Shown here in pieces: positions 15,563 to 43,296 of a DNA stretch of 64,000 nt (the first letter of the stretch is position 1; each line of letters opens with the position of its first letter). The notes below the pieces were generated by a model. It saw only the letters and a program-made list of their open reading frames with translations. It made no database searches and had not been told where the DNA came from. This DNA comes from Ochrobactrum sp. RH2CCR150. Its GTDB lineage: Bacteria; Pseudomonadota; Alphaproteobacteria; Rhizobiales; Rhizobiaceae. Position numbers and translations under genes: made by a program. The stretch covers positions 1-64,000 of the forward strand of contig JACGXE010000010.1 in NCBI GenBank assembly GCA_014138095.1, in the 5' to 3' direction.

Positions 15563-15591
15563 TGTCAGTTTCCTTTCATTTCGCGACACAT

Positions 15592-17176: not shown

Positions 17177-17204
17177 TATAGCCCCTGTTCGTAGTCCGCT
17201 TGGT

Positions 17205-27443: not shown

Positions 27444-28091
27444 TTACGCATCTGCAAATCTGGTTCGAAGCGTTAAGATATCGTCGTAGTAATCAATTTG
27501 ACCATCACGGATCATAATTCCGCAATCGCAATATTGCATGATCTGCGATATCGAATGCGAAACCATAATGACCCGAGCATGCGAGATTTTCGCATCTATT
27601 GCAGCCTTGGATTTAGCCTTGAACCGCTCATCGCCCACAGCAATAATTTCATCGATTAGATAACAGTCGAAATCAATCGCCAGACTCATGCCGATGGCCA
27701 GACGCGCTTTCATCCCGCTGGAATAGGTTTTGACCGGGAGATGGAGTGCAGTACCTAGCTCAGAAAAATCACTGACATAGTCGATCATCTGCTCCGTGTC
27801 CTGCCTATATATCCGCGCAACAAAACGGATGTTCTCCAGACCCGTCATTCCACCATTGAAACCGCTTGAAAAGCCCAGCGGCCACGACACGCGGCCGCGC
27901 CGCACGATCCGGCCTCTGTCGGGCAGCTCTGTACCGGCGATCAAGCGGATCAGCGTGGATTTGCCTGCCCCGTTGGGGCCAAGAATGGCGACGTTCCTGT
28001 CATTCGGAAAGGAAAAACTGAGACCGTCGAAAATGACTTTCCTTATCCCGTTGACCTTATACGATTTGGATACACCAATCAGATCGATCAA
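27444..28091 (-). CDS. kpsT: Capsule export ABC ATPase (KpsT)
   Basis: 215 residues, the usual KpsT/BexA/CtrD length. It has Walker A (GPNGAGKSTLIR), signature TYSSGMKARLAIGMSLAI, Walker B (CYLIDEIIAVGDERF) and the switch His in MVSHSISQIMQ; the acidic DEIIAVGD is typical of polysaccharide exporters. With KpsM it pushes lipid-linked capsule across the inner membrane. It is the last gene of the minus-strand capsule operon and overlaps kpsM by four bases. Confidence 0.92.
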   Translation of the reverse strand: MIDLIGVSKSYKVNGIRKVIFDGLSFSFPNDRNVAILGPNGAGKSTLIRLIAGTELPDRGRIVRRGRVSWPLGFSSGFNGGMTGLENIRFVARIYRQDTEQMIDYVSDFSELGTALHLPVKTYSSGMKARLAIGMSLAIDFDCYLIDEIIAVGDERFKAKSKAAIDAKISHARVIMVSHSISQIMQYCDCGIMIRDGQIDYYDDILTLRTRFADA

Positions 28092-28858
28092 GCGGTCCTC
28101 CTTTTCCTGAAAAGGCGCTCTCCGGAAAAGCCAACCAACAGTAGAACGAGTATTGATCTCATCAGATAGGCACGATCAAGGATTGTACTATCATAATCTG
28201 GATAGAAGCCATCGCGCATCCACTCCACCACATGCAGAATCGGATTCCAGGATAGGTATGTCATCAGGTCGGGCGGCAGCAGGCTCGGTACATAAAAAAT
28301 TCCGGATAGGAAAAAGAGCGGGCTGGTCAGTATTTTCTCAAGATGTCGCCAGGAATCCCAAATGGACAGAATGACCGCGTTTAAAACGCCAAAGGCTGTT
28401 CCCAATAGAGCTGTGACTGCAAAAGCTTCAATGGTCCTACCAAGATGAGCAGGCATTCCACTTGTGTCCCAAAAGATGATACCGCAAAACACCAACAGAA
28501 ACACAACGGCATAAGTTGCGCTAATCAGCAAAGCGCGCGCGACCAGAACATCCAGCTCCTTTATCGGTGGATAGGTCAAGAGGGCTTTGTTCGCTTCGAA
28601 TGCCGCCATCAATGACGACGACAGCTTGCTGAAGAACTGCAAGGTGAGGACGCCCGTTGCAAAAAAGAGCGCGAAACTCGATCCATAAGGAGGATTTCTT
28701 CCGGCCAAGGTGAACACAGCTACTAGCACCGCAATGCTGGTGGCTGGAACAATCACGGCCCAAAGATAACCGATGTGCGAGGCACCAAAAGCAGCGCGTG
28801 TTTCGCGCAAAACAAGTGCCTCCAACACGTGTATCTGTAATCCTAGCAAAGCCATCAT
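28088..28858 (-). CDS. kpsM: Capsule export ABC permease (KpsM)
   Basis: 256 residues from the ATG at 28858, which overlaps the kpsE stop as ATGA; a longer reading from 28906 adds 16 residues and is less likely. It is an ABC-2 type permease with about six membrane spans; the ETRAAFGASHIGYLWAVIVP start and ILTSPLFFLSGIFYVPSLLP are characteristic. It forms the inner-membrane channel for the capsule with KpsT. Confidence 0.9.
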   Translation of the reverse strand: MMALLGLQIHVLEALVLRETRAAFGASHIGYLWAVIVPATSIAVLVAVFTLAGRNPPYGSSFALFFATGVLTLQFFSKLSSSLMAAFEANKALLTYPPIKELDVLVARALLISATYAVVFLLVFCGIIFWDTSGMPAHLGRTIEAFAVTALLGTAFGVLNAVILSIWDSWRHLEKILTSPLFFLSGIFYVPSLLPPDLMTYLSWNPILHVVEWMRDGFYPDYDSTILDRAYLMRSILVLLLVGFSGERLFRKRRTA

Positions 28859-30060
28859 GACAAATGATCCCTCACTGAATAGATCATAAGGACGGCAAGC
28901 CCCCAAAGAGCGATGAGGATTGCACCAAACTCCAGAATGTTGAGAATGCGTTTGGGATAAAGCGGATATTCCGGCAGTGACGGCGATTCATAAATTGCCA
29001 GGTAGCGTTGCTGTCGTCCAGCTTCAACCCGCGCTTTTTCAAGAGAAGACAGTGCTGATGCGTAAGCCTGTTGCGAAAAGTTGCGCTCGACATCCAGGGT
29101 CTCATAGGTGGAAAGCAATTCGGATAAGGCAGTGTTCGGTAAGTTCTTTCTGCTCTCTCCTTTCGTCGCCTCCAGCTTTGTGGCGGCGATTTCCTGTTCC
29201 AGCGCATCCACCTGACGCCTTAGTATTTTCAGTGACGGAGAATCTTCGTCGACAGTACCGATAAGCGCGGATATTCTGGCTCGCAGTTCGGCGAGTTGTT
29301 TCTCAAGTCCGCCGACAATTTCAATTTGAACTTGCGCACTTTTGGTCGGATCAATTGACTTCTCGTCGTCACGGAAAAACCGCAGTTTCTCCAAAGCGTT
29401 CCGAAGTCTATCCTCTGCGTGCGCAACCTCTCCTTTCGCAAACGAAACAGCATCGGTTCTTGCCCGCTCCGATAATTCATTCACCAGCTCTGTACAGTAG
29501 TGTAGAACGAGATCGGCAATCCTTTCCGCGTCGCGCGGCGAAAATGCATTGACCCTAAAGGTGATCACACCCGAGATGTTATCGTAGGATGTCTGGATCA
29601 TTCCACTCCAATAATCAACAACATGTTCAATGTCGCTTCCGGTGGACAAATGGGAGATGATATCAGGACCTTCCGAGGCATAGGCACGGCGCAGCGGGAA
29701 GTCTTCTTCAAGCTTTTCGACCATCCCTCGGCTTTTCATGTACTTCAGCAAAATATAGGAATCCGAAGTTGTGCTACCAGCATTCGCAATGCCGGTGAAA
29801 GCTCCGAAGAAGTCGCCACCGCTCCCCGCATCCATGCTCCGCACGGCAAATCCAGCGCTTGCGACATAACGATCAGAAGCGATGCACATGAAGTACACAG
29901 CGCCAAGGATGGTGGGTACGATGACGACAAACGCGAACGAAAACGCTAGCACGTGTCGCCTTCGTTTCTGGGGCCGTGTTTGCCTTATTCTTGGGGCTCC
30001 GTCATCTTTGGTAGGCTGCGGCACCTTGAGGGAGACAACTGTTTTACTGGCGTCGTTCAA
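28855..30060 (-). CDS. kpsE: Capsule export periplasmic adaptor (KpsE/CtrB/BexC type)
   Basis: 401 residues. A basic cytoplasmic tail is followed by a membrane span at about 35-58, a long periplasmic region with coiled coils (about 205-345) and a second span near the C-terminus (about 372-392) preceded by the Pro-rich PSLPEYPLYPKR. This two-span polysaccharide co-polymerase layout links the KpsMT exporter to the outer-membrane channel. The start overlaps the end of kpsC by 17 bases. Length and order match ABC-dependent capsule loci. Confidence 0.87.
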   Translation of the reverse strand: MNDASKTVVSLKVPQPTKDDGAPRIRQTRPQKRRRHVLAFSFAFVVIVPTILGAVYFMCIASDRYVASAGFAVRSMDAGSGGDFFGAFTGIANAGSTTSDSYILLKYMKSRGMVEKLEEDFPLRRAYASEGPDIISHLSTGSDIEHVVDYWSGMIQTSYDNISGVITFRVNAFSPRDAERIADLVLHYCTELVNELSERARTDAVSFAKGEVAHAEDRLRNALEKLRFFRDDEKSIDPTKSAQVQIEIVGGLEKQLAELRARISALIGTVDEDSPSLKILRRQVDALEQEIAATKLEATKGESRKNLPNTALSELLSTYETLDVERNFSQQAYASALSSLEKARVEAGRQQRYLAIYESPSLPEYPLYPKRILNILEFGAILIALWGLAVLMIYSVRDHLS

Positions 30061-32107
30061 TCTGCGGTTCCACCGTGTGACGTCTCGGTGGCAAACCCGT
30101 TACCGAGCTGAGAGATATGTATCTGGCTTTTGTTGCTCTTGCTGTTTGCACTGCAAGCTTATAGGCGCGACGCCAAAGCGGGATATGCAATCGCGGCTGA
30201 TCGCGCCAGGCAATCAGTTCCTGCACGACGCGCTCCGGCGTCGTATAGTGTCCCGTCACGCGGCTTACATAAACTGGATAAAGGATCAGGGTTCCGGCGA
30301 CGAGTTCATCAAGGCTTAGCTGCCTTTTCCTAACAAAAGGGATGACGTCTTTCGTAAGCCCCCAACCGGAGTAGAAGGGCAACCCATAGCAAGTAACAGG
30401 AATTTCTCTGAGCAGCGCTTCAAACCCGGTGAGCGACGTCATCGTGTGAACTTCATCAACGGTGTCGAGTATTTGTGGTAATCTGGAATCCCATATGATT
30501 TCGTCACAATAAGATTTCAATTGCTCCGCCGTCGCTCCGCCATGACGCAAACCAGCGGTCACATCTGGATGAGGTTTGAACACAATATAAGCATCAGGCC
30601 TAGATCGGCGCACTGCTTTCAGCAGTTCGATAATTGTCGATGTGCCCGGTGCGCCCCAATGCAGCGATGCATCGTCTTCAACTTGGCCAGGCACTAGAAT
30701 GACAGGGTCGGCACCCACAGGCCGACACCATGCTGTTTGCGCGACATTATACTTGGAAAGACCCGCCGCAACGATAGTCTTGCGTAGTTCGGCCGCTCTT
30801 CTGAGAAGAGTTTTATCTTCCTGTAGGCCCTCAAGGATGTGGGAAAGACCGGAGTGCAGCGTAGCATCATAATAGATGCCGGCATCATCAACTATCCACG
30901 AGAGCGGCGGCGTCAGCTCTGCCCCCAACCCCACAGACCGTAGAAAGCCGTCTTCGATACGACGAATTGACAACGGCGTTTGAATGTCTTGGATATCTTG
31001 TTTCCCCCAGGCAAAAACATGTGATTGGGGCGGAACAGACTTGCCTGTCTTGTGAAAATGCACTTCTGAACCCGCCGCGAAGCGGCGAAGGATCGGCTGT
31101 TTCCATTTGCTGAACCTAACGGCATGAAGCTCCTTAGGCAGCCGTTCCCTCATGGTGCGCTGAAACGCGAGATACTCCGCAACACGTTCTACCTCGCAGC
31201 TTTGACCAGTCTCGGGATCGACATAATTGCAGTATTCTATCAGAGCCGCATGGACAAGCTGCTCTATACTCGCATTTTGTCGCCTGAGTGGTCTAGACAG
31301 CTCGTCTTGCGTCAGCCCCCAACCTGCGTAGAACGGCATACCGAAACAGCAGACTTCCTTATCCCAGATAAGTGCTTCAAAGCCAATCTGGGAAGTGACC
31401 GTATACACACGTTGACAGTTCTCGATCAACTTAACTGGATGACAGTTTTCACTGATCAGCTGGATGCGTGGATCATTCAATACATTTGGCGCAGTAAAAT
31501 AGCCTCTACGTCCACGGAAAAGAACATCAGGATGCGTTTTGACCAGAACAAAGCAATCAGGGTTTTCTATTAAGGCGTTATAGAGCATCTGATGGAAAGT
31601 GCGATCGTCAGCAAATCCATAGCTGACGGACCGATCACGAAAAGACTGATCGACCACAAGGACATAACGGTCAGGAAGATTGCCATCATATTCACGAGCG
31701 CAGTTATATTTGGAAATGCGGCCGCGCCGCCAAAGTCCGATCAATTCCTTTGCGCGATGCAGTTCAGTGGCCGACAGCGGTCTGGAAATCAATCGCTCAA
31801 GACGGCTCGGTTGTGTTGCGTCATAATAAATGCCTATATCGTCCTGAAGGAGCGACAGAGGTGGGTCGTTGCGTTCGACCGAGCGCAAGAAGCCGTCTTC
31901 CAGTGTCAGAAAGGGCAAAGCTCGATTGATGGCCAATCGCTTTGCCAAACGGGCATGTATTCCACGTCCCCACCCTGCCATTATATCGATATCACGCAAT
32001 CCACTGAGCGGGACATAGTGTGGCTCGGCTCCTAAAAACGCACGCAGATTGGGCAATCGCGTAGCCTGAGCGGAAAGGAACCCCATTTTTCTATGTGAGG
32101 CGCCCAT
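30044..32107 (-). CDS. kpsC: Capsule lipid-linker Kdo transferase (KpsC/LipA)
   Basis: 687 residues, normal for KpsC. Two homologous halves are visible: GFLRSV occurs at about residue 70 and again near 388, and the paired elements KTHPDV/KPHPDV, TSQIGFEALIW/TSLTGFEALL and CFGMPFYAGWGLT/CYGLPFYSGWGLT repeat in the same order. KpsC proteins add beta-linked Kdo residues to phosphatidylglycerol, building the linker on which the capsule is anchored, with KpsS adding the first. Presence of both kpsC and kpsS indicates a lipid-linked, ABC-exported capsule. It starts one base past the stop of the upstream glycosyltransferase gene. Confidence 0.92.
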   Translation of the reverse strand: MGASHRKMGFLSAQATRLPNLRAFLGAEPHYVPLSGLRDIDIMAGWGRGIHARLAKRLAINRALPFLTLEDGFLRSVERNDPPLSLLQDDIGIYYDATQPSRLERLISRPLSATELHRAKELIGLWRRGRISKYNCAREYDGNLPDRYVLVVDQSFRDRSVSYGFADDRTFHQMLYNALIENPDCFVLVKTHPDVLFRGRRGYFTAPNVLNDPRIQLISENCHPVKLIENCQRVYTVTSQIGFEALIWDKEVCCFGMPFYAGWGLTQDELSRPLRRQNASIEQLVHAALIEYCNYVDPETGQSCEVERVAEYLAFQRTMRERLPKELHAVRFSKWKQPILRRFAAGSEVHFHKTGKSVPPQSHVFAWGKQDIQDIQTPLSIRRIEDGFLRSVGLGAELTPPLSWIVDDAGIYYDATLHSGLSHILEGLQEDKTLLRRAAELRKTIVAAGLSKYNVAQTAWCRPVGADPVILVPGQVEDDASLHWGAPGTSTIIELLKAVRRSRPDAYIVFKPHPDVTAGLRHGGATAEQLKSYCDEIIWDSRLPQILDTVDEVHTMTSLTGFEALLREIPVTCYGLPFYSGWGLTKDVIPFVRKRQLSLDELVAGTLILYPVYVSRVTGHYTTPERVVQELIAWRDQPRLHIPLWRRAYKLAVQTARATKARYISLSSVTGLPPRRHTVEPQIERRQ

Positions 32108-32108: not shown

Positions 32109-33113
32109 TCAGGTTACTCTATCCATGATCTGTCCGAGCCGGTGTCGCCATGTGTGGTGTCGAAGCACGTGATCCGTGCCCGCACGCTTGCGTTCGCGAT
32201 CTCGGTGAGACCAGCCGTCCTTGGAAAGCCTGTCGAACAACAGCCTAGCATCTTCTTCGCAATCGATTGTCTCGCAGTAATCCCGAAAGTGCCGAGTGAC
32301 CGCCGGTGTTGTATTGGTAACGGCGAAGCCGCCACTTGCGATGATTTCCACCAGCCGCCGGGAGAAGGCAGTACGCGAATTATCGACCGTATTGACATTC
32401 AGGCTGGCAATATGACGGCGATAAACATCGGCTGTGCGCGTGTGTGCTATCGCCTTTTTGACGTTGATCCAATGCCGACTTGGAAAGCGGTATTGTTCCG
32501 ACCGGCGTCTGGAATTGCGGTTATAAACAGTCAAGCCAATGTCGTTAGCGGCCTCAAATGCCATATCCTGCCACTGGCGGCGGTGAATATGAAGATGTCG
32601 GCTGTAACTTCCGAGGAAAGCTAGCCGTCGATCTGGTTCGGTCAGCGCTGGATAGTGTATTGCCGGTTGAGCCGCGAACATTAGTACGTCGAGTGAAGGT
32701 GTATCTTTAAGCGCTGCATGGTAGAGCGGTATCATGTTTTCATCGACTGTAAAAATATGCTCAAACAAGCTTGCCGAAGCGATGAAGCGGTCAAAATGGA
32801 CACCGTCCTCGCGGTTCCAGAATACTGTCGGGATGCTTTCATCCCGCGCGCGACCCACAAGGCAATCCAGAACTGCGTTGTTGCGCTCCGGATGATCAGG
32901 ATAAGACGCAATGCCGTATCGCCAGCCGCCCCAGAATCCTTCCCATGCCGACTCGACCAACAGAATATCTGGCTTCCAGTGATCGAACACATAAAGACTA
33001 TTCCAGTACGTGACGTTCATCACGCGGCATTCATGCGACAAGCATATTCGTGTCGGTTCATCTGCGATCAAGGCAATCTTGAGACGAGAAAAGATGGAAC
33101 GTGGCGAACTCAA
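32109..33113 (-). CDS. CgeB-like glycosyltransferase
   Basis: 334 residues resembling the CgeB family of glycosyltransferases. Motifs are ILLVESAWEGFWGGW, SIPTVFWNREDGVHF, FEHIFTVDENMIPLY and, in the C-terminal nucleotide-sugar region, SRRLVEIIASGGFAVTN. Residues about 615-960 of the neighbouring 1709-residue protein carry the same elements (VESAW, IPTVFWNKED), so the two are paralogous domains. It probably adds one sugar of the capsule repeat; donor and acceptor are unknown. Overlaps the upstream gene by four bases. Confidence 0.75.
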   Translation of the reverse strand: MSSPRSIFSRLKIALIADEPTRICLSHECRVMNVTYWNSLYVFDHWKPDILLVESAWEGFWGGWRYGIASYPDHPERNNAVLDCLVGRARDESIPTVFWNREDGVHFDRFIASASLFEHIFTVDENMIPLYHAALKDTPSLDVLMFAAQPAIHYPALTEPDRRLAFLGSYSRHLHIHRRQWQDMAFEAANDIGLTVYNRNSRRRSEQYRFPSRHWINVKKAIAHTRTADVYRRHIASLNVNTVDNSRTAFSRRLVEIIASGGFAVTNTTPAVTRHFRDYCETIDCEEDARLLFDRLSKDGWSHRDRERKRAGTDHVLRHHTWRHRLGQIMDRVT

Positions 33114-36100
33114 GACGAAGCCTCCACGTGGAAGCCGCAGATCAGCGCCAACTCCTGGCGGATAATCTCGTTGGCGCTGCTTTGACTGCGCACCCGCTTC
33201 GCGGCGGCCCTGGACATATCGAGAAATTTCTGCGGATGTTTGTAGAGATCGGCTATGGCAGCCGCCAAGCCTGTGGCATCCTCTGGCTTAGTCAGATAGC
33301 CGCAGCTTTCATCCAGAAATTCGGGTATAGCCGATATTCCAGTGGTGACGGGCACAAGGCCAGAGGACATCGCCTCATCACGGGAAACACCTTGAGAATC
33401 CCATCGCGTCGGCGTTAGAAAGACCCCATAATTTTCCTGAAGAGCGACGATTTCAGAATGGGAGACAAAACGCTTTTCCAGAAATACATTTTTGAACCCC
33501 TGCAATGGTAGTGTTTCTTCATCGAAGAGCTGCCCATCGCCGATCAGGCGAAACTCCAAGGCCGGCAAAAATGGCTCGTCTTTCAGAGCCAGTATCGCGG
33601 CTACAGACAAATCATTGGCGTATTTCTTGGATGCGTAGGTTCGGATCGACAGGATGCGCTGACGAAGACCGACGTCTTTCTTCTGATAGGCAAAAAGATC
33701 GGTATCGATGGGGTTATGGATGATGGAGTAACGCCACTCAGCGAGCCGGAATCCCAGATCCTCCATCACCTCTTCAGAGAAATTCTTCGATACGAAGATG
33801 ATGTGAAGATTGTCATGCTGTTTGGCTAAAAGCTTCTGCCAGAACTCAAGCCTTTGCTGGCTTTTCGCCTTCTCGGCCTGTCGTTCCAAATCGTTGCGAA
33901 AATTGAATTCGCGCCGATGCCAAGGCTGAATCTCCGCACCATGGATCCAGACATTGACTCTCACTTTGTCGATGTGGCGCTCCAATACTTGCCACATGAC
34001 GGGATCAAGGAAATGCACGGCAATACTCTCGAACCGACTGTCGCCGATCAGCTTGTCCAGCGCCTCGGTGCCACCTGTCGTTACGTCGACGTCTTCGAAT
34101 TCATGGTAGCTGAGCGTGGCATTCGCCTGAAAGCGGAAGACATCCACCGGCACGTTGCGCTTGATGTAATGCTTCACCCGGCTGTGTACGAAGCCGTTTC
34201 GATACAAGTCGTCATAGCGCGGATAATGATTGGTCAGAACGAGATGGCGAGCTTTTCCCAGGAGCGCTCCTGGCACTGTAGCCTTGTGGCCTTTGAATAG
34301 TCTTTTGACCTCGGCAGTGCCCGGACCGTACAACCGTAAACCGATACGAACCAGAGACGTGTTGTCCGGTAAGGTGCAAGTGGCATTCTGGTTCGCGTGG
34401 AATATTTCGTGGCTGAGCTTCTGCCTTTTCGCGTCGAGGTAAACCAGAACGCATTGAACATTCAATCCGGGCGTCGTTTCCAGATGTAGTTTCGCTGTGT
34501 CCGAGAAGCCGAGTGCTGCTGGCTCTAGTTCCCTGGAGGCATACACATACTCGTGCTTGCCGTCGGGCAAGATTGAAGACATCCGCCAGCGTTGGTCCTG
34601 AACCGCAAGCGTGAGATACTCGCTGCGCGTCGTTTTAAAGTGACTGGCAAGGTCTGGCGCAGAAATCGCCGAGTCTGCCCCCGTTGGCATGGAGTCAGCC
34701 GCTATCGCCTCGGCTCTGGCAATAATCGAGGACATGCTGAGACCCGCATCGAAATGCGCATCATCAACTTGTTCCAGAGCCGCTGCGGTAGCGGCCGTTC
34801 CGTTCTCGCAATAGTTAAACTCGTCGATAAACAGCGCTCGGTCGACAGTAACAACCTTTCGATGAAGGTCTGCAATCCAGTCATTAACGGCATCATCTTC
34901 GATCACCGACGCCGCAATGATCGCAGATTTTGCCATCACTGTTTTGCCGGGACGATAGCGGTGGCCGGTATCGCTCAATTCGATACCATCGGCTGACTCT
35001 GACACATAATAGTGATCATGTTTGCCGATGGCCTCCCCATTGAAGTAACGCGTAGCCAAAGCAAGATCGGTGAGGTAGTGGCGGCCATAGTAATCTGTTT
35101 CGACCATGCCAGCGACATAACGGGCGCTACCGGTCAGCGATGAGAAGCGCGCTTCATGCAGATGTGCGCCGTCGATAGCGTGTACCAAAATATTGTCTTG
35201 CGGTTCAACTACAAAGCCGTTTGTCACGACCAAAAGACGCTTTTTCTGGTAGGTTTGGCGATGGAAGTTCGTGAGTATCCGATCAAATATAGCGAGGTCA
35301 TCGGCATAGGAGACCACCAGAATATCCGGCAGCAATTGGGCCGGCTGGGTTCGCAGCACCTTCGAAGCTACGTAAGCAAGGCGGTCTTGCATTGTATGTT
35401 CGCTCATGACCTTGCGCAGACCAGCCAGCCGGAACTTCCGTGCCGACGTGTCATCGGAAATTCCGTCGAGACTTCGGAGGATTTCATCGCCATTATCGCT
35501 ACAGATAACCAGGTCACCGAAGAGTTTGCGCACCCCACGCGAAAAATTACTGATGGTGATCGTGTTGCTGCCAAGCAGTTCGTAAACCCGGCGCGCAAAC
35601 ATACTTTGGGATTGCTTGATTGAGTTCATGTTGATGGCGTGCGTGTAAGCCTTATAGGCCTTTTCAATCTGCTCATAAGAAAGGTTCCCCACGATGAAAG
35701 GCTGAAACTCCGGCGGGAACTGATACCGTGGATCGTCCTGTCCATAATTGCGATCATAGATCGCAACCTTGTGGTTTTCTGCAAGCGCCGAGATGATACT
35801 CGCAAGATCGCCATTGCGTTCCGGATATCGCGCATAATAAGCCCCGGCAAATGAGAACGCTTGCTCACGCGCATAAGTTTCAATCGGATTGAAGCGACTG
35901 GTCGGGCAGGCAAAAGGCAAAAGCCAGACATTGTCGTGTCCCAGTGCTGCTTTATATCGACCGATACAGTCGATATCAGTCGTGAAAACATGATCGAACA
36001 GAACGGCTGTGTTCAGGAATGTCTCGTAATGGACGGGATCTTCCTTATTCCAAAACACCGTCGGTATTCTTCGGTGCTTGCACCACTCGACCAGCTCGAC

Positions 36101-38239
36101 CAGATGGTTGCTGCGATGTCCAATCTGATTGCCCCAAAGCTCATCTTTCCCGCGCCAAGCGGATTCAACAAACAGCAATTCCGGAGCAAAAGCCTCAAGC
36201 TGATCCCGCCAGTCATCTGGAGTAAGCTGCATGAGAACGGCTTCGCTCTCATAGGAAGCATAGGTGAAGTCATCCATAATGCAGGCTATCTTGAGCGCCT
36301 TGAGTTGCTGTGCGCTGTAACCCGCCTTTTCAAAGGTGATTGAAGGCAATTTCAGTTTCGCAGGGACCAAGCGTGCAGGTTTGAAATCGCCTTTGGTCCG
36401 TAGCTTGGCATCTTTCGATATATCTCGAAGACGCTGCGGCAAGAGCGCTAGACCTTGCCAGGATTTGCTTGCCTGAATGAGCGCATAACCAAGCTGGAAC
36501 GAGATCATATTGCGGGTTCGCAAAACTTTCGTTTCAGCCAGAACGCGCCCTCTTTCGGCGGCTTCGACCTTGGTTTGCAGCAGCATGATTTGGGCACTGG
36601 AGCGTTGAACCTGCCGTTGCAATTCTTCGTTGCGGATGCCGGTACTGCGGCCGTCCAATTCCGCTGCTTCAAGCCTGCCGAATGTCGCCTGGTGCAGCTC
36701 CTTTTCAGCTTGCAGTTCTTTTTGGGTCTGATCGTGGGCGAGTTTTCGCTGCACGGCATCCGTACGCAATCGCGCTAGAGTGTGCTCGGCTTCTTGCAGA
36801 CTGGAGGTCAACAATCCGATCTTCTCATCCTTGTTGGTAAGTTCAAACTGCAACTCACCGATTTGACTTTCCAACACCCGACGCTGGAACCGCTCGCTTT
36901 CCTGTAGTTTTGCGAACAGCTCTAGTTCGGTCTTACCGCGACTGACTTCAGCGAGCGCATCCTGCAATTCACCGGAAAGACGCACGATCTCCTGATCCTG
37001 ATCGTCTCGTTCGGCACGAAGCTGCTTTAATCGTCCTGCTGCGATAGTCGTCTCGTTCGTCTGCGTGGCAAGCCGTTCACCAGCTTCTTTGAGCAGTATG
37101 TCAACGGCATCAAGACGGGCTTCCGCCAGAATGATTTTCTTCTCAGCAACAAGCCGCTCATGTCGTTCACTCTCAAGTGTTTCAGCGAGCTGTTCCGACT
37201 CGTGCTTGAACCGTTCGGTCAGAGTTTCGAGGGCGGTGTGCTCTGCTGACAGACGGGCGAAGTCCTGAGCAGACGCGGCCTTTTCCAGCTTTGCCCTCTG
37301 CAAGCTGCCTTCCAGCAGATCAACACTGTCAGCGATCTCGGCACCCTTGCCTCGGTAAACATCAATTTCGGCATTAAGCGCAACAACCCGCTCTTCCGCG
37401 AGCAACTGGATTATTTCTGCCTGCGATAAGGTGTCTATCAGTGTGGCGTTCTGCTCGTCGATGGATTGAAGCCGAGCCTTCAGCTTATCAACCTTGTCCG
37501 TCAATGCGCCTGATTTGGAAATCAAATCGCGTTCAACGCTTTGAAAGGCCCGCTCCACTTCCAGTAGCAACGCCTCGGACGGTACGCCATCGAGCTCGCG
37601 GGACTCGCCGCGCCTCCGACCGACAAAGCCAATCCATTTGCCGAAGAATTTTACCTCCTCGATGTCAAAATGCTTAGACAGCAATCGCCAGGGTCCAAGC
37701 AGATAGAATGTGTGTTTGTGGTCTGGCCAGTCGTTGACACCAAAGGGCACGGTAACGATAACCGTTCCATTTTCATTGAGCAGTCGGGCGGCAGCGCTGA
37801 CGAATTCATCCGGCTTCGTCAAATGCTCCAGCACTTCGCTCATGATGACAGTGTCGAATGTTTCGGCTCCGAAATCTGTGCCTATGAAATCGCCATGAAT
37901 GAACCTGACGCTTTGTCGTACATGGGCGGGTTCACGCGCGATGAATTGACGTGCCTCATCAATTGATCGCTTGGAAATGTCGAGCGCAATGACGGAGCGT
38001 CGTTCTCGCCCAAGCAGGATCGACGTTATGCCCTGACTGCAACCAACATCGAGGATGCGTATCCCCTTGGTGCGTTCGCATATCCAATGAATGCGCTCAC
38101 GTGTGGACTGGGCAAACTCTTGTCCAAGCTGGCCAAGATAGGCTTCCATGATGCGGTCATGTAGGTCCGGCAACAGTGCGGCTTCCGCAAGTCCGGCATT
38201 GTTCGTCTGTTCAGATATGTCTGGCGATTGAAGGGTCAT
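33110..38239 (-). CDS. Giant multidomain capsule glycosyltransferase/methyltransferase
   Basis: 1709 residues without interruption. Order by eye: SAM methyltransferase about 30-205 (RILDVGCSQGITSILLG, VIMSEVLEHL); long coiled coil about 220-575; CgeB-like glycosyltransferase about 645-960 (LLFVESAWRG, IPTVFWNKED); a region about 970-1150 that begins like a family 2 glycosyltransferase (DILVVSYADDLAIFDRILTN) but lacks a clear DxD; a beta-rich segment about 1205-1315; a GT4-type glycosyltransferase about 1330-1700 (IIHNPIDTDLF, RLIGDG, RDEAMSSGLVPVTTGISAIP). It lies between wecC and the CgeB-like gene. It probably polymerises the repeat unit and may methylate or terminate it, the coiled coil perhaps acting as a length ruler as in WbdD-type proteins. 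That role is inference. Confidence 0.8.
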   Translation of the reverse strand: MTLQSPDISEQTNNAGLAEAALLPDLHDRIMEAYLGQLGQEFAQSTRERIHWICERTKGIRILDVGCSQGITSILLGRERRSVIALDISKRSIDEARQFIAREPAHVRQSVRFIHGDFIGTDFGAETFDTVIMSEVLEHLTKPDEFVSAAARLLNENGTVIVTVPFGVNDWPDHKHTFYLLGPWRLLSKHFDIEEVKFFGKWIGFVGRRRGESRELDGVPSEALLLEVERAFQSVERDLISKSGALTDKVDKLKARLQSIDEQNATLIDTLSQAEIIQLLAEERVVALNAEIDVYRGKGAEIADSVDLLEGSLQRAKLEKAASAQDFARLSAEHTALETLTERFKHESEQLAETLESERHERLVAEKKIILAEARLDAVDILLKEAGERLATQTNETTIAAGRLKQLRAERDDQDQEIVRLSGELQDALAEVSRGKTELELFAKLQESERFQRRVLESQIGELQFELTNKDEKIGLLTSSLQEAEHTLARLRTDAVQRKLAHDQTQKELQAEKELHQATFGRLEAAELDGRSTGIRNEELQRQVQRSSAQIMLLQTKVEAAERGRVLAETKVLRTRNMISFQLGYALIQASKSWQGLALLPQRLRDISKDAKLRTKGDFKPARLVPAKLKLPSITFEKAGYSAQQLKALKIACIMDDFTYASYESEAVLMQLTPDDWRDQLEAFAPELLFVESAWRGKDELWGNQIGHRSNHLVELVEWCKHRRIPTVFWNKEDPVHYETFLNTAVLFDHVFTTDIDCIGRYKAALGHDNVWLLPFACPTSRFNPIETYAREQAFSFAGAYYARYPERNGDLASIISALAENHKVAIYDRNYGQDDPRYQFPPEFQPFIVGNLSYEQIEKAYKAYTHAINMNSIKQSQSMFARRVYELLGSNTITISNFSRGVRKLFGDLVICSDNGDEILRSLDGISDDTSARKFRLAGLRKVMSEHTMQDRLAYVASKVLRTQPAQLLPDILVVSYADDLAIFDRILTNFHRQTYQKKRLLVVTNGFVVEPQDNILVHAIDGAHLHEARFSSLTGSARYVAGMVETDYYGRHYLTDLALATRYFNGEAIGKHDHYYVSESADGIELSDTGHRYRPGKTVMAKSAIIAASVIEDDAVNDWIADLHRKVVTVDRALFIDEFNYCENGTAATAAALEQVDDAHFDAGLSMSSIIARAEAIAADSMPTGADSAISAPDLASHFKTTRSEYLTLAVQDQRWRMSSILPDGKHEYVYASRELEPAALGFSDTAKLHLETTPGLNVQCVLVYLDAKRQKLSHEIFHANQNATCTLPDNTSLVRIGLRLYGPGTAEVKRLFKGHKATVPGALLGKARHLVLTNHYPRYDDLYRNGFVHSRVKHYIKRNVPVDVFRFQANATLSYHEFEDVDVTTGGTEALDKLIGDSRFESIAVHFLDPVMWQVLERHIDKVRVNVWIHGAEIQPWHRREFNFRNDLERQAEKAKSQQRLEFWQKLLAKQHDNLHIIFVSKNFSEEVMEDLGFRLAEWRYSIIHNPIDTDLFAYQKKDVGLRQRILSIRTYASKKYANDLSVAAILALKDEPFLPALEFRLIGDGQLFDEETLPLQGFKNVFLEKRFVSHSEIVALQENYGVFLTPTRWDSQGVSRDEAMSSGLVPVTTGISAIPEFLDESCGYLTKPEDATGLAAAIADLYKHPQKFLDMSRAAAKRVRSQSSANEIIRQELALICGFHVEASS

Positions 38240-38248: not shown

Positions 38249-39568
38249 TCAACCCTCAACCGCATTCTGGCGCGCCTTGCGAGGTTTAGCGGTTCGCTGG
38301 TTCGCGAGCAGCCCCACCACATCAATGATCTGCTGGTCATCACGTAAGGATTGTTCTGCAAGGAATTGGAATGATCGGTGCGCGACCAGAACCAGCAATA
38401 TATCAGCCTCTTCCACTGCGACGGGAATATCCACCAGTCGGGCTTTAGGCAGGCGTGGTGGGAGCTTTTCGATATTCGGTTCAACAACTATCAGCTGCTC
38501 TCCAAATTCTTTATAGAGCGCAATAGCTATTTCCAGCGCGGGGCTTTCGCGCAGGTCATCAATATCTGGTTTGAACGAAAGTCCGCAGACAGCAATCACA
38601 GGCTTTCTTCCATTATGATGCTCAAAGTTTGCAGCCGCTGCCCGAAGTTTTTGCAAAGTCCAATCAGGCTTTGAATTGTTCACATTGCGCGCCGCGCGCA
38701 CGAGATGCGCCAGATCCGGCGCTCCGGCCACGATGAACCAGGGATCGACGGCAATGCAATGACCGCCGACTCCAGCGCCAGGCTGAAGAATATTGACCCG
38801 GGGATGACGGTTCGCCAGACGGATCAATTCCCAGACATCGATACCGCTTCGGTCGCAGATTAGCGAAAGCTCGTTCGCATAAGCGATGTTCACATCACGA
38901 AATGCGTTTTCCGCAAGCTTGCACATTTCCGCTGTGCGCACATCTGTGGCAATGCATTCGCCTGTGACAAACACCTTGTAGAGCGCCCTTGCGGCCGCTG
39001 CGCAGCGTGGTGTTACCCCACCGATAATGCGATCATTGTGTACCAGTTCATCCAGCACCTTGCCGGGTAGTACACGTTCAGGACAATGGGCAATCCGGAT
39101 ATCAGAAGCCTCACCCGCATCCTGCGGGAAGGTTAAGTCAGGACGGGCCTCCGCAAGCCATTCCGCCATTTTTTGGGTCGCACCCACGGGAGAGGTTGAC
39201 TCCAGAACCACGAGGTTTCCAGTTGTGAGTACAGGTGCGATAGCGCGCGCCGCGGCCTCTATATAAGACAAATCGGGTTCGTGGTTCGAGCCGACGAATG
39301 GTGTTGGCACAGCAATCAAAAAGGCGTCAGCGGGACCAACTATAGTGGATGCACGAAGATAACCGCCCAAGACCACTTGCCTGACGCAATCTTCAAGACC
39401 AGGTTCAACGATATGCACCTCACCCCTGTTAGTGGTCGCAACAACGGACACGTTAACATCGACGCCCTGCACGCTGAGGCCATGTTGGGCGAAGACCGTG
39501 GCTGTTGGGAGGCCGATGTAACCAAGGCCGATTACGCATAAGGTTTCGTAGGCAAAAAAATGCTGCAT
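38249..39568 (-). CDS. wecC: UDP-N-acetyl-D-mannosamine dehydrogenase (WecC type)
   Basis: 439 residues from the ATG at 39568; a longer reading overlaps wecB. UDP-sugar dehydrogenase features: Rossmann motif VIGLGYIGLPTATVFAQHG, VLESTSPVGAT, RIAHCPERVLPG, the central-domain KLAENAFRDVNIAYANELS and the catalytic cysteine in GAGVGGHCIAVDPWF. It oxidises UDP-ManNAc to UDP-ManNAcA using NAD. It follows wecB by 13 bases, and together they would supply N-acetylmannosaminuronic acid for the capsule. WecC rather than UDP-glucose dehydrogenase is favoured by the wecB pairing. Confidence 0.88.
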   Translation of the reverse strand: MQHFFAYETLCVIGLGYIGLPTATVFAQHGLSVQGVDVNVSVVATTNRGEVHIVEPGLEDCVRQVVLGGYLRASTIVGPADAFLIAVPTPFVGSNHEPDLSYIEAAARAIAPVLTTGNLVVLESTSPVGATQKMAEWLAEARPDLTFPQDAGEASDIRIAHCPERVLPGKVLDELVHNDRIIGGVTPRCAAAARALYKVFVTGECIATDVRTAEMCKLAENAFRDVNIAYANELSLICDRSGIDVWELIRLANRHPRVNILQPGAGVGGHCIAVDPWFIVAGAPDLAHLVRAARNVNNSKPDWTLQKLRAAAANFEHHNGRKPVIAVCGLSFKPDIDDLRESPALEIAIALYKEFGEQLIVVEPNIEKLPPRLPKARLVDIPVAVEEADILLVLVAHRSFQFLAEQSLRDDQQIIDVVGLLANQRTAKPRKARQNAVEG

Positions 39569-39581
39569 GAACGTGGTCCCG

Positions 39582-40742
39582 TCAGGAATACAGTGCGGAT
39601 GCATGTTTGCGACCAAGACCAGTCGAAAAATTTTGTAGGGCTCTTACGATGGCAATTGAGGCTGTTCCATTGCCATAGGGGTTCTGAGCTGTTGCCATTT
39701 GATTGTAGACGTCGGGATCAAGAAGCAGCTCTCGGACGCCGTCGAATATGCGGATTCGGTCGGCTCCAACCAATCTGGCAGTGCCAGCTGCGACAGCTTC
39801 GGGGCGTTCGGTGGTTTCACGCATCACCAGAACGGGCTTGCCGAATGTCGGCGCTTCTTCCTGCACACCGCCAGAATCTGTGAGTATCAGGTAGGAGCGT
39901 TTCATTAACCAGACGAAAGGCAGGTAGTCCTGAGGTTCGATCAGGTAAATATTTGAAATTCCGCACAGAAGTCGCCCAACAGGTTCGCGGACACTGGGAT
40001 TCAAATGCACTGGATAGACAAAATCAACATCCGGGAAATGGCGGGCGAGATCGCAAACCGCCTCGCAGATGTTTTCAAAACCAGAACCTAAATTCTCACG
40101 GCGATGCCCGGTTATCAGCACGAGCGGCGCCTTCGCGCGCAAAAAGTTGAAGCGCTTACGCATTGTATTGTCAAGCTGGGCGTCCTGAGTGAAAAGCTGC
40201 TCGGTATGAACCAGAGCATCGATCACCGTATTTCCCACCACGGTGATGTTTCGTGCCGGAATGCCTTCCAGCAGCAGATTTGTTCGCGCATTTTCAGTCG
40301 GCGCAAAATGGAGCGCTGCTAGCGCGCCGGTCAGTTTGCGATTGGCTTCTTCCGGCCACGGCGAGTAGAGATTACCAGTACGCAAACCGGCCTCTACATG
40401 CCCGATTGGCGTCCGATGAAAATAGGCCGCAAGGCTGGCACTGAAAGTCGTCGAAGTATCGCCATGAACCAGAACGATATCAGGAGAAAAGTCGTCGAAC
40501 ACCGCGTCCATACCGAGAAGAATAGCGCTCGTGATATCGCCGAGTGTTTGGCCGGGTTTCATGATGTCCAGATCATAATCCGGGGTCAGCTCAAAAAGCT
40601 GTAGCACTTGGTCCAGCATTTGTCTGTGCTGAGCCGTTACGCACAAGCGCGCTTCGAATCCTTCAGTATCGGAGAGACCTCTCACGACAGGCGCCATCTT
40701 GATCGCTTCGGGCCGCGTGCCGAAGACCGTTAGTACTTTCAT
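39582..40742 (-). CDS. wecB: UDP-N-acetylglucosamine 2-epimerase (non-hydrolysing)
   Basis: 386 residues from MKVLTVFGTRPEAIK (ATG at 40742, GGGGGC upstream); five extra residues are possible. Signature regions: VHGDTSTTFSASLAAYFH, GHVEAGLRTGNLYSPWPEE, VLITGHRRENLG, SYLILTDSGGVQEEAPTFGK and VMRETTERPEAV. It converts UDP-GlcNAc to UDP-ManNAc. It sits between the export lipoprotein gene and wecC in the capsule operon. Confidence 0.93.
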   Translation of the reverse strand: MKVLTVFGTRPEAIKMAPVVRGLSDTEGFEARLCVTAQHRQMLDQVLQLFELTPDYDLDIMKPGQTLGDITSAILLGMDAVFDDFSPDIVLVHGDTSTTFSASLAAYFHRTPIGHVEAGLRTGNLYSPWPEEANRKLTGALAALHFAPTENARTNLLLEGIPARNITVVGNTVIDALVHTEQLFTQDAQLDNTMRKRFNFLRAKAPLVLITGHRRENLGSGFENICEAVCDLARHFPDVDFVYPVHLNPSVREPVGRLLCGISNIYLIEPQDYLPFVWLMKRSYLILTDSGGVQEEAPTFGKPVLVMRETTERPEAVAAGTARLVGADRIRIFDGVRELLLDPDVYNQMATAQNPYGNGTASIAIVRALQNFSTGLGRKHASALYS

Positions 40743-40837
40743 ATGCCCCCACATCATTTGTCGGAGCGTTCCCGTGCGAAACCGGATAATGGAAGCGCTG
40801 ATTTATCTCTTAGTCTGGTCGGCCTGCTTGAAACCGT

Positions 40838-41986
40838 TTATTCGCCAAGAACCTCAGCCGTTCGGGCAGCGCCGAGAACCGGAGAAACGATTAGCGTCAG
40901 AAACTTGCTCAACTCGGCAGCGGGATGGTTGGCGACATAGATGACGTCCTTGTCTCGCATCTGAAATGACTGGGAAAGAAAGAAGGATTCAGGCTTGTTG
41001 AAGTTAAGCCTGTATATAACTGGTACACGTCGAGTATCGTCTATTGGCAATCGGTCTGCCCGACTACCGGACATTTGTTGCACAAGTCCGTAAGGTTCGA
41101 ACCTGAAGATAAAGACACCACCAGCATCGGCAGATCGGTCACTCAGACCACCCACTTGTGCCAAGGCTTCAGATAAAACGAGCTTTTCGGCCGGGAAAGC
41201 AACGAGCTGACTATTCTTGACCGCGCCAAAGGCTGAGAAAGTGCGTGGCTGGTGTGTCACGGTTATATTGTCGCCGGAAGCTAGCCAGATGTTATCATCT
41301 GGATAGTTGACAGCATCTTCAAGCCGCACGGTCGCGTTGGCTGCGCCCCTTGTCACCGTCGCAATGCTTTCGAAAATCGCTTTTTTGGTTCCGCCCGCAA
41401 GCGCAACGGCATCCAATAGCTTTAGACCGCGCAACGGTACCGGAAAGGGCCCGGAACTTGCCACGTCCCCCGTGACAATCAGTACTTTACTTCGATTTTC
41501 GGTCACGAGGACTTGAATCTGCGGCTCTACCGCCTTGCCTTTCAGTCCCACTTCAATCGTGCGACGTAACGCTTCGGCGCTCTGCTCCGCAGCGCGCACC
41601 TGCCCGATATAGGGGATGAACACCATACCCCGCTCATCGACAATCAGCTGCAGCGTAGCGCTCTTTTTCTCTGCCGTCGAAAACAAACCGTCAGGAGCTG
41701 CCTCCCAGATATTCACCGCAAGCCCGTCACCTGCACCGATCGTCATCGCTTGCCTGTTGCCAAGTTTACCCTTGAAACTCGCGGGAATGCCGCCGAATGA
41801 GTAATTCCTTAGGACGGACAGTGCAGCGGCATTGAGTGGCACGACGACATAGCTTTTACTTTCGGCTTTTGTGGTTGTTTTGGTACCAACCGCTGCGGTC
41901 AGGGGGCCGCTGCCGGGAACTGCTGTGCAGCCCACAAGACCGGGAATGGTGATAGCTGTTACGAGAAGGTGTGCGAACTTTTTCAT
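40838..41986 (-). CDS. Outer-membrane capsule export lipoprotein (CtrA/BexD/KpsD type)
   Basis: 382 residues. A lipoprotein signal peptide ends in the lipobox LVGC (Cys about 20). An export (PES) domain follows (about 80-165; DGLAVNIWEAAPDG, VDERGMVFIPYIGQV) and then SLBB-like repeats (about 165-300; VTGDVASSGPFPVP, LLDAVALAGGTKK, FSAFGAVKNSQL, LVLSEALAQVGGL). It forms the outer-membrane channel contacting KpsE. The start overlaps the kpsS stop by one base. It belongs to the OPX/Wza superfamily and, given kpsMTECS, works in ABC-dependent export. Confidence 0.9.
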   Translation of the reverse strand: MKKFAHLLVTAITIPGLVGCTAVPGSGPLTAAVGTKTTTKAESKSYVVVPLNAAALSVLRNYSFGGIPASFKGKLGNRQAMTIGAGDGLAVNIWEAAPDGLFSTAEKKSATLQLIVDERGMVFIPYIGQVRAAEQSAEALRRTIEVGLKGKAVEPQIQVLVTENRSKVLIVTGDVASSGPFPVPLRGLKLLDAVALAGGTKKAIFESIATVTRGAANATVRLEDAVNYPDDNIWLASGDNITVTHQPRTFSAFGAVKNSQLVAFPAEKLVLSEALAQVGGLSDRSADAGGVFIFRFEPYGLVQQMSGSRADRLPIDDTRRVPVIYRLNFNKPESFFLSQSFQMRDKDVIYVANHPAAELSKFLTLIVSPVLGAARTAEVLGE

Positions 41987-43296
41987 TAAGCTGCGTCCTT
42001 CAGAACGTCGCGTCGAACAGCCGGAGAACGGATCGCATCAATGACGGCCTTACAACTTGCTTCCATTCCGTTCGCAGTAAAAAAATCTCCGGGTCGCAAG
42101 CAGTGTTTCCTTATCCAAGCGATGTAACGCTTTCGCAGGCGCGCATGAGCAACTGTTCCACTCTTCCAAAATGCATCAAAATCCGGTTTTCCGAACGCAC
42201 AAGTAGCAAGGTCACTATTGGCATAAACCGCGTCTCCAATAACCAGAAGTCGAACTCCGTGATGAATGGCGGAGAAGCCAGATGTGCTGTTGATGGTGAT
42301 CATGCCAGCCGAATGGCGCGTCAGATGGCCAATTGACCCCACATCCACGAGGTCGACGCGATTGCGGATGCCAAGTTTGGTGGCTGTTTCATCTATGAGA
42401 CAACGATCATTGTCGCGTCCGCGTTCAAGCGGATGTATCTTGAAAACCAAACGAAGAGTTTCTGGGGCAGATACCGCAAAGCTATCGAGCACTTCGGTTA
42501 TCAAACGCGTGTTGTTCCAGCCTATGGCAGATTGCTTCAGCTGGGTATCCTGCGCGACCTGTAGCGCCACAACAAAATACTGACCAACATGATGTTCCAG
42601 AAGATGCTCGATGATGGCCCTATTCTTGGACTGTCTCCAAAACCATCGGTGTAGATTTCTGATCCAACATACAGTTTCCCGAAAGCCATCGATATTGCGG
42701 TGCAGAAGTTGTCGCTGTCTGCCTCTCGCAAAAACTGCAATGGCCCCGTAATAGAGGCCCCCATAGGCACACATTGCTGGGAAATTCCGTCGATCAGCCC
42801 TATAGGATTCTTCAGTCTCGATCTGAATGTTGCGTGGTGGTAACTGCCTGGCAATTGGAGACATTGCGTTGTTTGCTCCAAACTCCAGCGTGATCGCGCC
42901 AGGGCGTATATATCCCTCTTCAAGTGAAATCACAGCCAGTCCCAGCTCATCAGCCACCCGGCGTGCAACGACATGAACCGGGCGTTCTGATCCGAAGAGA
43001 ACCATATGCGTGATTGCCTTTTTCTTGATCTGCACACAAAGCCAATCTTGAAGACCATCCATGTTGCCGCGATAGATCAAAGTGCCGTTGGCAAGCCCTG
43101 CGAACAGCCGGTCTCCCGGGTTGAACAGAACCTGAAAGCAGTGAAAGCTCAGCTGTTTCAGTCTTTTCCGAAGTCGATAAAAGAATGGGCCGACAGGTCC
43201 TTGTAGCAGGAGAACCCGTTGCCATGGTTCAGGTTTCAACTCGTCTCTGGGATCAGCCCGCACAATGATTTCCTGCCGTCTCGCGCGATAATTCAT
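41986..43296 (-). CDS. kpsS: Capsule Kdo transferase (KpsS/LipB)
   Basis: 436 residues. KpsS-family signatures: RVLLLQGPVGPFFYRLRKRL, FNPGDRLF, VISLEEGYIRPGAITLE, RLVFKIHPLERG and SAGMITINSTSGFSAIHHGV. KpsS transfers the first Kdo to the phosphatidylglycerol anchor, before KpsC. It is the first gene of the capsule operon, with 278 bp upstream that should contain the promoter; no strong ribosome binding site was seen before the chosen ATG, so the start may lie slightly further in. The upstream gap holds a CGGTCT/AGACCG inverted repeat (43475-43492) of unknown role. Confidence 0.88.
   Translation of the reverse strand: MNYRARRQEIIVRADPRDELKPEPWQRVLLLQGPVGPFFYRLRKRLKQLSFHCFQVLFNPGDRLFAGLANGTLIYRGNMDGLQDWLCVQIKKKAITHMVLFGSERPVHVVARRVADELGLAVISLEEGYIRPGAITLEFGANNAMSPIARQLPPRNIQIETEESYRADRRNFPAMCAYGGLYYGAIAVFARGRQRQLLHRNIDGFRETVCWIRNLHRWFWRQSKNRAIIEHLLEHHVGQYFVVALQVAQDTQLKQSAIGWNNTRLITEVLDSFAVSAPETLRLVFKIHPLERGRDNDRCLIDETATKLGIRNRVDLVDVGSIGHLTRHSAGMITINSTSGFSAIHHGVRLLVIGDAVYANSDLATCAFGKPDFDAFWKSGTVAHARLRKRYIAWIRKHCLRPGDFFTANGMEASCKAVIDAIRSPAVRRDVLKDAA

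What the first reader, a model, noticed from the sequence alone, without database searches (positions are those of the whole stretch)
33110..38239. 1709-residue capsule enzyme: methyltransferase, coiled coil and several transferase domains
One frame joins a SAM methyltransferase, about 350 residues of coiled coil, a CgeB-like transferase, an unassigned region, a beta-rich segment and a GT4 transferase. The methyltransferase-plus-coiled-coil pattern recalls WbdD, which caps O-antigen chains and measures length with its coiled coil, but here it is fused to polymerising domains. This could be a single-chain polymerase with its own ruler and terminator.
Basis: inference. Interest (0 to 1): 0.78.

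Follow-up and report, generated by a model that had tools for sequence, protein, structure and literature searches.

The report
Capsule polymerase with built-in chain terminator
A very large bacterial enzyme appears to build a sugar capsule with three sugar-adding modules and to carry, at the far end of a long rod, a methyl-adding module that probably caps the finished chain; the design is known from O-antigen enzymes, but here it sits in a capsule system and belongs to a scattered family whose rod length differs up to twofold between otherwise very similar proteins.

Summary
The 1709-residue frame is one intact gene with full-length relatives (84% and 82% identity) in two other genomes. Order: class I SAM methyltransferase, proline-free coiled coil (about 225-580), basic amphipathic junction, CgeB-like GT-B, a domain unknown to Pfam that looks GT-A-like, beta-sandwich, GT4. 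It sits in a ten-gene operon with WecB, WecC and KpsC/S/D/E/M/T-like genes, so the polymer probably contains ManNAcA and is Kdo-linked.

Of 81 relatives of the polymerase block, 20 carry a fused Methyltransf_11-type domain, 18 an FkbM-type methyltransferase, and 43 none (five of those have a separate methyltransferase-coil gene, one is an interrupted copy). Methyltransferase and coil come and go together on the tree. In seven Pseudomonas loci, very similar methyltransferases and polymerases are joined by stretches of 516 to 1049 residues.

Best reading: a single-chain polymerase with a tethered methyl-only terminator, like WbdD of O8 but fused. Precedents exist (Klebsiella O7 ORF6, WbbB, E. 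coli O101 MT). What differs: no kinase, other glycosyltransferases, a Kdo-linked capsule, and a KpsT without cap-reading module. Ruler function is inferred, not shown. New variant of a known kind.

The parts
33110..38239 (-). 1709-aa methyltransferase - coiled coil - polymerase gene
37595..38152 (-). class I SAM methyltransferase domain (residues about 30-215), motif ILDVGCSQG
   Evidence: Pfam; alignment; AlphaFold; Foldseek (SAM- or SAH-bound methyltransferases among the hits)
36500..37576 (-). coiled coil (residues about 222-580)
   Evidence: the model covers it only to residue 299
36380..36514 (-). basic amphipathic junction (residues about 576-620), candidate membrane-association helix
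   Evidence: SFQLGYxLI..KSW..L..LP pattern shared with many relatives, hydrophobic moment 0.48; membrane role inferred
35354..36301 (-). CgeB-like GT-B glycosyltransferase module (residues 647-962)
   Evidence: Pfam; AlphaFold; invariant K-E-D and R-R; no solved relative found by profile (19 of 78 rows used)
34685..35341 (-). domain without Pfam family (residues about 967-1185), read as GT-A-like; conserved D1049, D1058, K1073, D1139
   Evidence: fold class inferred
34286..34672 (-). beta-sandwich (residues about 1190-1318), possible carbohydrate-binding module
   Evidence: AlphaFold strands; function inferred
33125..34252 (-). GT4 glycosyltransferase module (residues about 1330-1705), D1614/E1622 as a D-x7-E motif
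   Evidence: (both invariant in 78 of 78)
32109..33113 (-). stand-alone CgeB-like GT, paralogue (29%) of the CgeB module; candidate transition transferase onto the Kdo linker
   Evidence: same neighbourhood in 8 of 13 KpsC-bearing loci, 3 of the 8 being the window's own clade; role inferred
30044..32107 (-). KpsC-like Kdo transferase (687 aa)
   Evidence: Pfam Capsule_synth 1.3e-76 in four stretches
41986..43296 (-). KpsS-like Kdo transferase
   Evidence: Pfam Capsule_synth; NF050054 213.8 bits, below cut-off 600
40838..41986 (-). KpsD/Wza-like polysaccharide export protein
39582..40757 (-). WecB, UDP-GlcNAc 2-epimerase
   Evidence: NCBIfam TIGR00236 above cut-off
38249..39616 (-). WecC, UDP-ManNAc dehydrogenase
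   Evidence: NCBIfam NF008286 above cut-off
28855..30060 (-). KpsE-like export protein
   Evidence: TIGR01010 5.5e-79 but below cut-off
28088..28906 (-). KpsM-like ABC permease
   Evidence: ABC2_membrane; NF050053 below cut-off
27444..28091 (-). KpsT-like ABC ATPase, 215 aa, no carbohydrate-binding module found

Best explanation
A single-chain capsule polymerase with a tethered methyl-only chain terminator. Step 1 (inferred from KpsS- and KpsC-like genes): a Kdo linker is built on a lipid. Step 2 (inferred): the stand-alone CgeB-like enzyme adds the first sugar, probably ManNAcA. Step 3 (inferred from folds, conserved residues and wecB-wecC): the CgeB-like, GT-A-like and GT4 modules extend the chain from UDP-ManNAcA and probably UDP-GlcNAc or UDP-Glc. 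Step 4 (inferred from architecture and precedents): the chain end reaches the methyltransferase at the far end of the coil, about 50 nm if fully extended, and one O-methyl group blocks further growth; coil length would set the modal chain length. Step 5 (inferred): KpsMT, which lacks a cap-reading module, exports by the Kdo-lipid end, so the cap would control length rather than license export.
For: Domain order and complete Kps/wec operon. Confident models: polymerase block pLDDT 92.3, pTM 0.89; methyltransferase running into one helix, pLDDT 84.9. SAM motif kept in 21 of 24 aligned methyltransferases, the window among them. GT4 D-x7-E invariant in 78 of 78. The polymerase block occurs with two different methyltransferase families at the same place: 20 Methyltransf_11-type and 18 FkbM-type of 81 ORFs. 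Methyltransferase and coil go together: coil in 37 of 39 rows with a fused methyltransferase and in 9 of 42 without; independent pairs on the tree agree 6.5 to 0 on average, median p 0.016, range 0.008-0.22. In 3 Paenibacillus loci the methyltransferase-coil is a separate gene directly upstream of the polymerase. Coil length varies while both ends are conserved (Pseudomonas). wecB or wecC held in 64 of 79 loci. Precedents: PMC11231755, PMC13168486, PMC3482155.
Against: No enzyme assay; repeat unit unknown. Coil without fused methyltransferase in 9 of 81 rows (of these L048 has a separate methyltransferase-coil gene, L085 runs off its contig, and L095 has a GT4 there by Pfam). Three relatives have decayed methyltransferase motifs yet long coils. 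L074 kept coil and junction but lacks the methyltransferase of its sister L051. KpsT lacks the module that reads the cap in the terminated O-antigens described in PMC11231755. In the window's own genus the linker/coil length is constant (430-433 in three sequences). WbdD is not among the 50 Foldseek rows shown for the methyltransferase nor among the 60 rows shown of the profile search.
Confidence: 0.62

Rival explanations
1. The coil is a scaffold or oligomeriser, not a ruler. The methyltransferase may still cap chains, but chain length is set by export or precursor supply, as in coupled systems without a cap-reading transporter.
For: 9 of 81 rows keep a coil without a fused methyltransferase; decayed methyltransferases on long coils; no cap-reading module on KpsT; in Klebsiella O2a length is set by the transporter:synthesis complex ratio (PMC11231755 passage).
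Against: Methyltransferase and coil are gained or lost together; stretches of 500-1000 residues are longer than simple oligomerisation needs; the WbdD coil and that of O12 (WbbB) are reported rulers (PMC11231755).
Confidence: 0.25
2. The methyltransferase decorates sugars inside the repeat unit rather than the chain end.
For: Foldseek hits include RebM and AtmM, which I recall as sugar O-methyltransferases (AtmM chains are named D-glucose O-methyltransferase). No structure of the polymer is known.
Against: Placement at the far end of a long coil is the layout of known terminators; a decorating enzyme would need no coil.
Confidence: 0.1
3. The polymerase is real but the N-terminal methyltransferase is vestigial or methylates something else in the window's organism.
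For: Decay of the SAM motif in three relatives.
Against: Window motif intact; the domain is 85% and 81% identical to the two genus relatives, as the polymerase is (85% and 83%).
Confidence: 0.05

Closest known systems
Klebsiella pneumoniae O7 ORF6 (PMC11231755: abstract, sections 11 and 13 part 1 of 2 each, passages)
   Same: One chain: N-terminal methyltransferase, coiled coil, C-terminal polymerising glycosyltransferases; termination shown in vitro there.
   Different: It has a kinase and a CBM before the coil and two GT2 modules, and makes an O-antigen. Here no kinase, CgeB/GT-A-like/GT4 modules, and a Kps-type ManNAcA operon.
WbbB of Klebsiella O12 / Raoultella terrigena (seen through PMC11231755; title and abstract start of PMC9587256)
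   Same: Polymerase, terminator and coil in a single polypeptide.
   Different: Terminator is a Kdo transferase (GT99); O-antigen.
WbdD of E. coli O9a and O8 (PMC3482155, passages)
   Same: Methyltransferase at the far end of a coil; the O8 form is a simple methyltransferase.
   Different: Separate polymerase WbdA; O9a has a kinase; the transporter carries a cap-reading CBM.
Methyltransferase-coil protein of E. coli O101/O162 (PMC13168486, passages)
   Same: One methyltransferase domain with a coil at its C-terminus, prerequisite for O-methylation read as terminal capping; ruler proposed.
   Different: Stand-alone protein; O-antigen containing GalNAc.
Putative methyltransferase genes with variable coils in E. 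coli group 3 kps clusters (PMC13171606 and PMC10433991, passages)
   Same: Methyltransferase with length-variable coil in Kps capsule loci.
   Different: Listed as genes of their own; function not studied in the passages seen.
Cps3D capsule polymerase of Actinobacillus pleuropneumoniae (PMC11666461 passages; PDB 8qoy)
   Same: Multi-domain group 2 capsule polymerase primed by transition transferases.
   Different: TPR domain; the words coiled-coil, methyltransferase and terminat- do not occur in that paper's main text.
Human EXT1-EXT2 (PDB 7scj, 7sch, 7zay)
   Same: Polymerase with two glycosyltransferase folds in tandem (GT-B plus GT-A, recalled); Foldseek aligns 551-586 columns.
   Different: TM-score only 0.17-0.19 by query length, rmsd about 15; a likeness of layout at most.

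Membership tests
WbdD (O9a type) | N-terminal class I SAM methyltransferase | tested here: met
WbdD (O9a type) | kinase domain between methyltransferase and coil | tested here: not met
   no kinase among the Pfam hits; helix starts at 222 right after the methyltransferase
WbdD (O9a type) | extended coiled coil | tested here: met
WbdD (any type) | amphipathic membrane helix and polymerase recruitment at the end of the coil | tested here: inconclusive
   conserved basic amphipathic junction; the polymerase is fused here
Terminated ABC-transporter O-antigens | ABC ATPase with C-terminal cap-reading CBM | tested here: not met
   KpsT-like protein is 215 aa with ATPase families only
Klebsiella O7 ORF6 type | methyltransferase-coil-glycosyltransferases in one chain | tested here: met
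Klebsiella O7 ORF6 type | kinase plus CBM before the coil, GT2 polymerase modules | tested here: not met
WbbB | N-terminal Kdo transferase as terminator | tested here: not met
   N-terminus is a methyltransferase
Kps (Kdo-linked) ABC capsule | KpsC, KpsS, KpsD, KpsE, KpsM, KpsT genes | tested here: met
   family-level hits; KpsE, KpsM, KpsS below NCBI cut-offs for the named models
Kps (Kdo-linked) ABC capsule | poly-Kdo linker on the polymer | not testable with these tools
   chemistry needed
Chain-length ruler | chain length scales with coil length | not testable with these tools
   natural length series found, polymer not measured
GT4 | E-x7-E-type motif | tested here: met
   D1614-x7-E1622 variant invariant in 78 of 78; motif recalled

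The most novel reading that the evidence does not exclude
A Kdo-linked capsule in which the two chain ends have split duties: the Kdo-lipid end is read for export and a methyl cap, added by a module tethered on a coil, only sets length. The methyltransferase-coil is an interchangeable cassette on one ManNAcA polymerase, exchanged between two methyltransferase families and gained or lost many times across phyla, and 35- or 39-residue coil repeats make chain length rapidly evolvable.
Probability: 0.35. Interest if true: 0.75.

Novelty: new variant of a known kind. Interest (0 to 1): 0.55.

Why it matters
How Kdo-linked capsules set their chain length seems open: the words ruler and terminator do not occur in the main text of a 2025 review on capsule chain length (PMC12220298, word search and passages), and the Hib capsule is described as having no chain-terminating residue (PMC11231755). 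This family puts an O-antigen-type terminator on capsule polymerases and offers a natural length series: Pseudomonas loci with very similar ends and linker/coil stretches of 516 to 1049 residues. Measuring polymer length in such strains would test the ruler idea without engineering. The central domain, unknown to Pfam but with conserved acidic and lysine residues, is a candidate new glycosyltransferase family.

Tried and rejected
Rejected: frame fusion or chance ORF (full-length relatives); membership in WbdD-O9a (no kinase found); middle domain as a decayed remnant (D1058 78 of 78, K1073 77 of 78, D1049 76 of 78, D1139 75 of 78). Led nowhere: Pfam scan of the middle domain (33 of 78 rows; no family matched more than one member, best E 0.009) and its PDB profile search (best hit 5hea at E 0.03); PDB profile search of the CgeB module (19 of 78 rows; one chance hit at E 0.97); spectral test of the coil (not specific); multiples of 7 or 11 in coil indels (no clear preference); paper search for CgeB in capsules (one unrelated paper). 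VIA-align was never available. A counter tested wecB in the wrong case; one search gives the right counts. Coil calls in relatives rest on a crude home-made predictor and a threshold of 80 residues, so individual loci can be wrong. The search for related loci kept the best 80 of 293 relatives, so counts describe the closest relatives only. Alignment A2 used 77 of the 80 polymerase stretches printed (L073, L076, L090 left out). The tree is a quick one with several long branches.
Full report
What is there. Window 33110-38239 (-) encodes one 1709-residue protein without internal stops. Of 60 related genomes searched, G016 (84%) and G021 (82%) hold it whole and G030 holds it in two pieces on two contigs with a stop inside; G014, G029 and G004 match only the CgeB module at 35-39%, and the other matches are short hits to common methyltransferases and GT4 enzymes. 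Named contigs with the same two proteins are Brucella haematophila (L035) and Ochrobactrum teleogrylli (L036), so the window lies in that clade.

Anatomy. Pfam finds a class I methyltransferase at 63-162, a CgeB-like transferase at 849-956 and a GT4 at 1533-1667. AlphaFold with a 78-row alignment gives the polymerase block (641-1709) at mean pLDDT 92.3, pTM 0.89: a GT-B (about 650-961), an alpha/beta domain (about 973-1178), a beta-sandwich (about 1191-1316) and a second GT-B (about 1332-1701) (the names of the folds are my reading). With a 24-row alignment the N-terminus is a Rossmann methyltransferase that runs into one helix from 222 on (pLDDT 84.9). Foldseek matches it to many methyltransferases, several solved with SAM or SAH. 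For the polymerase block Foldseek against the PDB lists retaining GT-B enzymes such as MshA and glycogen synthase first, and lower down EXT1-EXT2 over 551-586 columns, but with TM-scores of 0.17-0.19 and rmsd about 15, and the capsule enzyme 8qoy with no meaningful superposition (rmsd 22.9); against viral models the first hit is a multiple-glycosyltransferase protein over 563 columns. I read the alpha/beta domain as GT-A-like from its strand order, the conserved acidic residue after its fourth strand, the EXT likeness, and a weak profile hit to the glycosyltransferase 5hea (E 0.03); this is inference. No Pfam family matches more than one of 33 members. D1058 is kept in 78 of 78, K1073 in 77, D1049 in 76, D1139 in 75; the GT4 residues D1614 and E1622 in 78 of 78.

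The coil. Residues 225-580 lie in a 380-residue proline-free run; the heptad score is reached by 2 of 2000 shuffles, against 60, 106, 310 and 553 of 2000 for other segments; a spectral test was not specific. At its end lies a conserved pattern, SFQLGYxLI...KSW..L..LP followed by basic residues; a loose regular expression finds the LG core in 18 of 20 relatives with a fused methyltransferase of the window's type, 5 of 18 with the other type and 9 of 43 with none. It resembles in position the membrane helix of WbdD; that role is inferred.

Setting. On the same strand and almost without gaps lie KpsS-like, KpsD-like, WecB, WecC, this gene, a stand-alone CgeB-like transferase (29% to the CgeB module), KpsC-like, KpsE-, KpsM- and KpsT-like genes. 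Ten genes scanned on either side look unrelated or have no family. No other sugar-nucleotide gene is among the ten operon genes scanned, so the repeat most likely contains ManNAcA and one or two common sugars. The stand-alone CgeB-like gene lies beside KpsC in 8 of the 13 loci where KpsC is held, 3 of the 8 from the window's clade, and in an E. coli and a Citrobacter plasmid a CgeB-like gene (34-35% to the module) lies directly before wecB-wecC. This suggests that CgeB-type enzymes here use UDP-ManNAcA and that the stand-alone copy primes the Kdo linker, as transition transferases do (PMC11666461, passages). Inference.

Relatives. A scan of genome contigs gave 293 relatives of the polymerase block, of which the best 80 (79 loci) were kept, by title from Pseudomonadota, Paenibacillus, Actinomycetota, Nitrospira, Planctomycetota and others, many of them metagenome assemblies. 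The block is widely scattered but not common: among 398 genomes drawn from the phylum, G341 holds nearly all of the 713-residue query, G381 and G448 part of it. The 79 loci hold 81 polymerase ORFs: 20 with a fused Methyltransf_11-type domain, 18 with an FkbM-type domain, 43 with none fused, the interrupted L073 among the 43. The FkbM assignment was checked by Pfam on 5 members, the other type on the window, L043, L089 and the separate L093; the rest rest on home-made profiles. Of the 43, three Paenibacillus loci carry a separate methyltransferase-coil gene of the first type and L048 and L062 one of the second. wecB or wecC is held in 64 of 79 loci, both in 52; several of the 15 without are short contigs. 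KpsC or KpsS is held within about 10 kb in 5 of 20, 3 of 18 and 6 of 41 loci of the three classes.

Module swapping. On a tree of 81 polymerase rows (window added, L073 left out) the two fused types need at least 6 and 11 changes on well-supported branches. Presence of a fused methyltransferase needs 20 changes in all. Coil and methyltransferase go together: coil in 37 of 39 rows with, in 9 of 42 without. Over independent pairs the coil follows the methyltransferase 6.5 times to 0 on average, median p 0.016, range 0.008-0.22. So the pair behaves as one unit, added to or removed from one polymerase; the tree cannot tell gain from loss.

Length series. In seven Pseudomonas loci (L038, L040-L045) the methyltransferases are 92-99% identical, the polymerase blocks 77-93%, and the stretch between is 516 to 1049 residues, with 39- and 35-residue periodicity. 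In the window's own genus it is 430-433 in three sequences.

Mechanism. The best reading is a polymerase that carries its own methyl-only terminator on a rod. Known cases of this layout: Klebsiella O7 ORF6, with activity shown (PMC11231755), WbbB, and the split systems WbdD-WbdA and O101 MT (PMC3482155; PMC13168486). In the terminated O-antigens described in PMC11231755 the transporter carries a module that reads the cap. Here the KpsT-like protein has 215 residues and no such module, and in the group 2 model the transporter is believed to read the glycolipid end (PMC11666461). I therefore infer that the cap sets length rather than licensing export. That would fit the loss of the methyltransferase in L074 beside its sister L051 and its decay in L088, L102 and L103 without loss of the locus.

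What speaks against. The same losses show that the coil has some use without the cap. No polymer is known. The ruler is untested. The rod-length argument rests on sequence alone.

Novelty. The architecture is not new in kind. New here, as far as my searches of an open-licence library show (listings), are the fusion with a ManNAcA polymerase in a Kps-type capsule operon, the exchange of two methyltransferase families on it, and the length series. A survey of chain terminators stands in the reference list of PMC11231755 (a title match); I did not read it and it may already list some of these. E. coli group 3 capsule loci are reported to have methyltransferase genes with variable coils (PMC13171606).

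Noticed in passing
L010 and L073 (one interrupted relative): A close relative (88% over the polymerase block) is interrupted by a stop between coil and polymerase and its N-terminal part lies on another contig; natural fission or a draft artefact. Described only; intact copies exist in other genomes.
   Followed up: partly
L088:7802-13186, L102:7775-13216, L103:7916-13210: Achromobacter and Bordetella relatives keep long coils but have a decayed methyltransferase motif I (DADCGQA in place of DVGCSQG).
   Followed up: partly
L074:8999-13237 against L051:7373-13195: Sister polymerases: one with FkbM-type methyltransferase and long coil, the other with a shorter coil and junction but no methyltransferase.
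   Followed up: partly
L034 (Caballeronia insecticola plasmid p2), 16403-17836: Directly after the polymerase lies a separate gene joining a methyltransferase and a polysaccharide deacetylase domain.
   Followed up: partly
L114 (Citrobacter freundii plasmid), 4856-20989: A plasmid-borne capsule locus with wecB-wecC and CgeB-like proteins lies beside a Tn4401-family transposase and resolvase.
   Followed up: no
L032:10279-15228 (Leisingera plasmid): The annotated start of this gene (10834) leaves out an in-frame N-terminal methyltransferase region.
   Followed up: partly
window 44803-46543 (-): Three adjacent frames of 186, 197 and 203 aa upstream of the capsule operon without Pfam hit at E 1e-5.
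   Followed up: no
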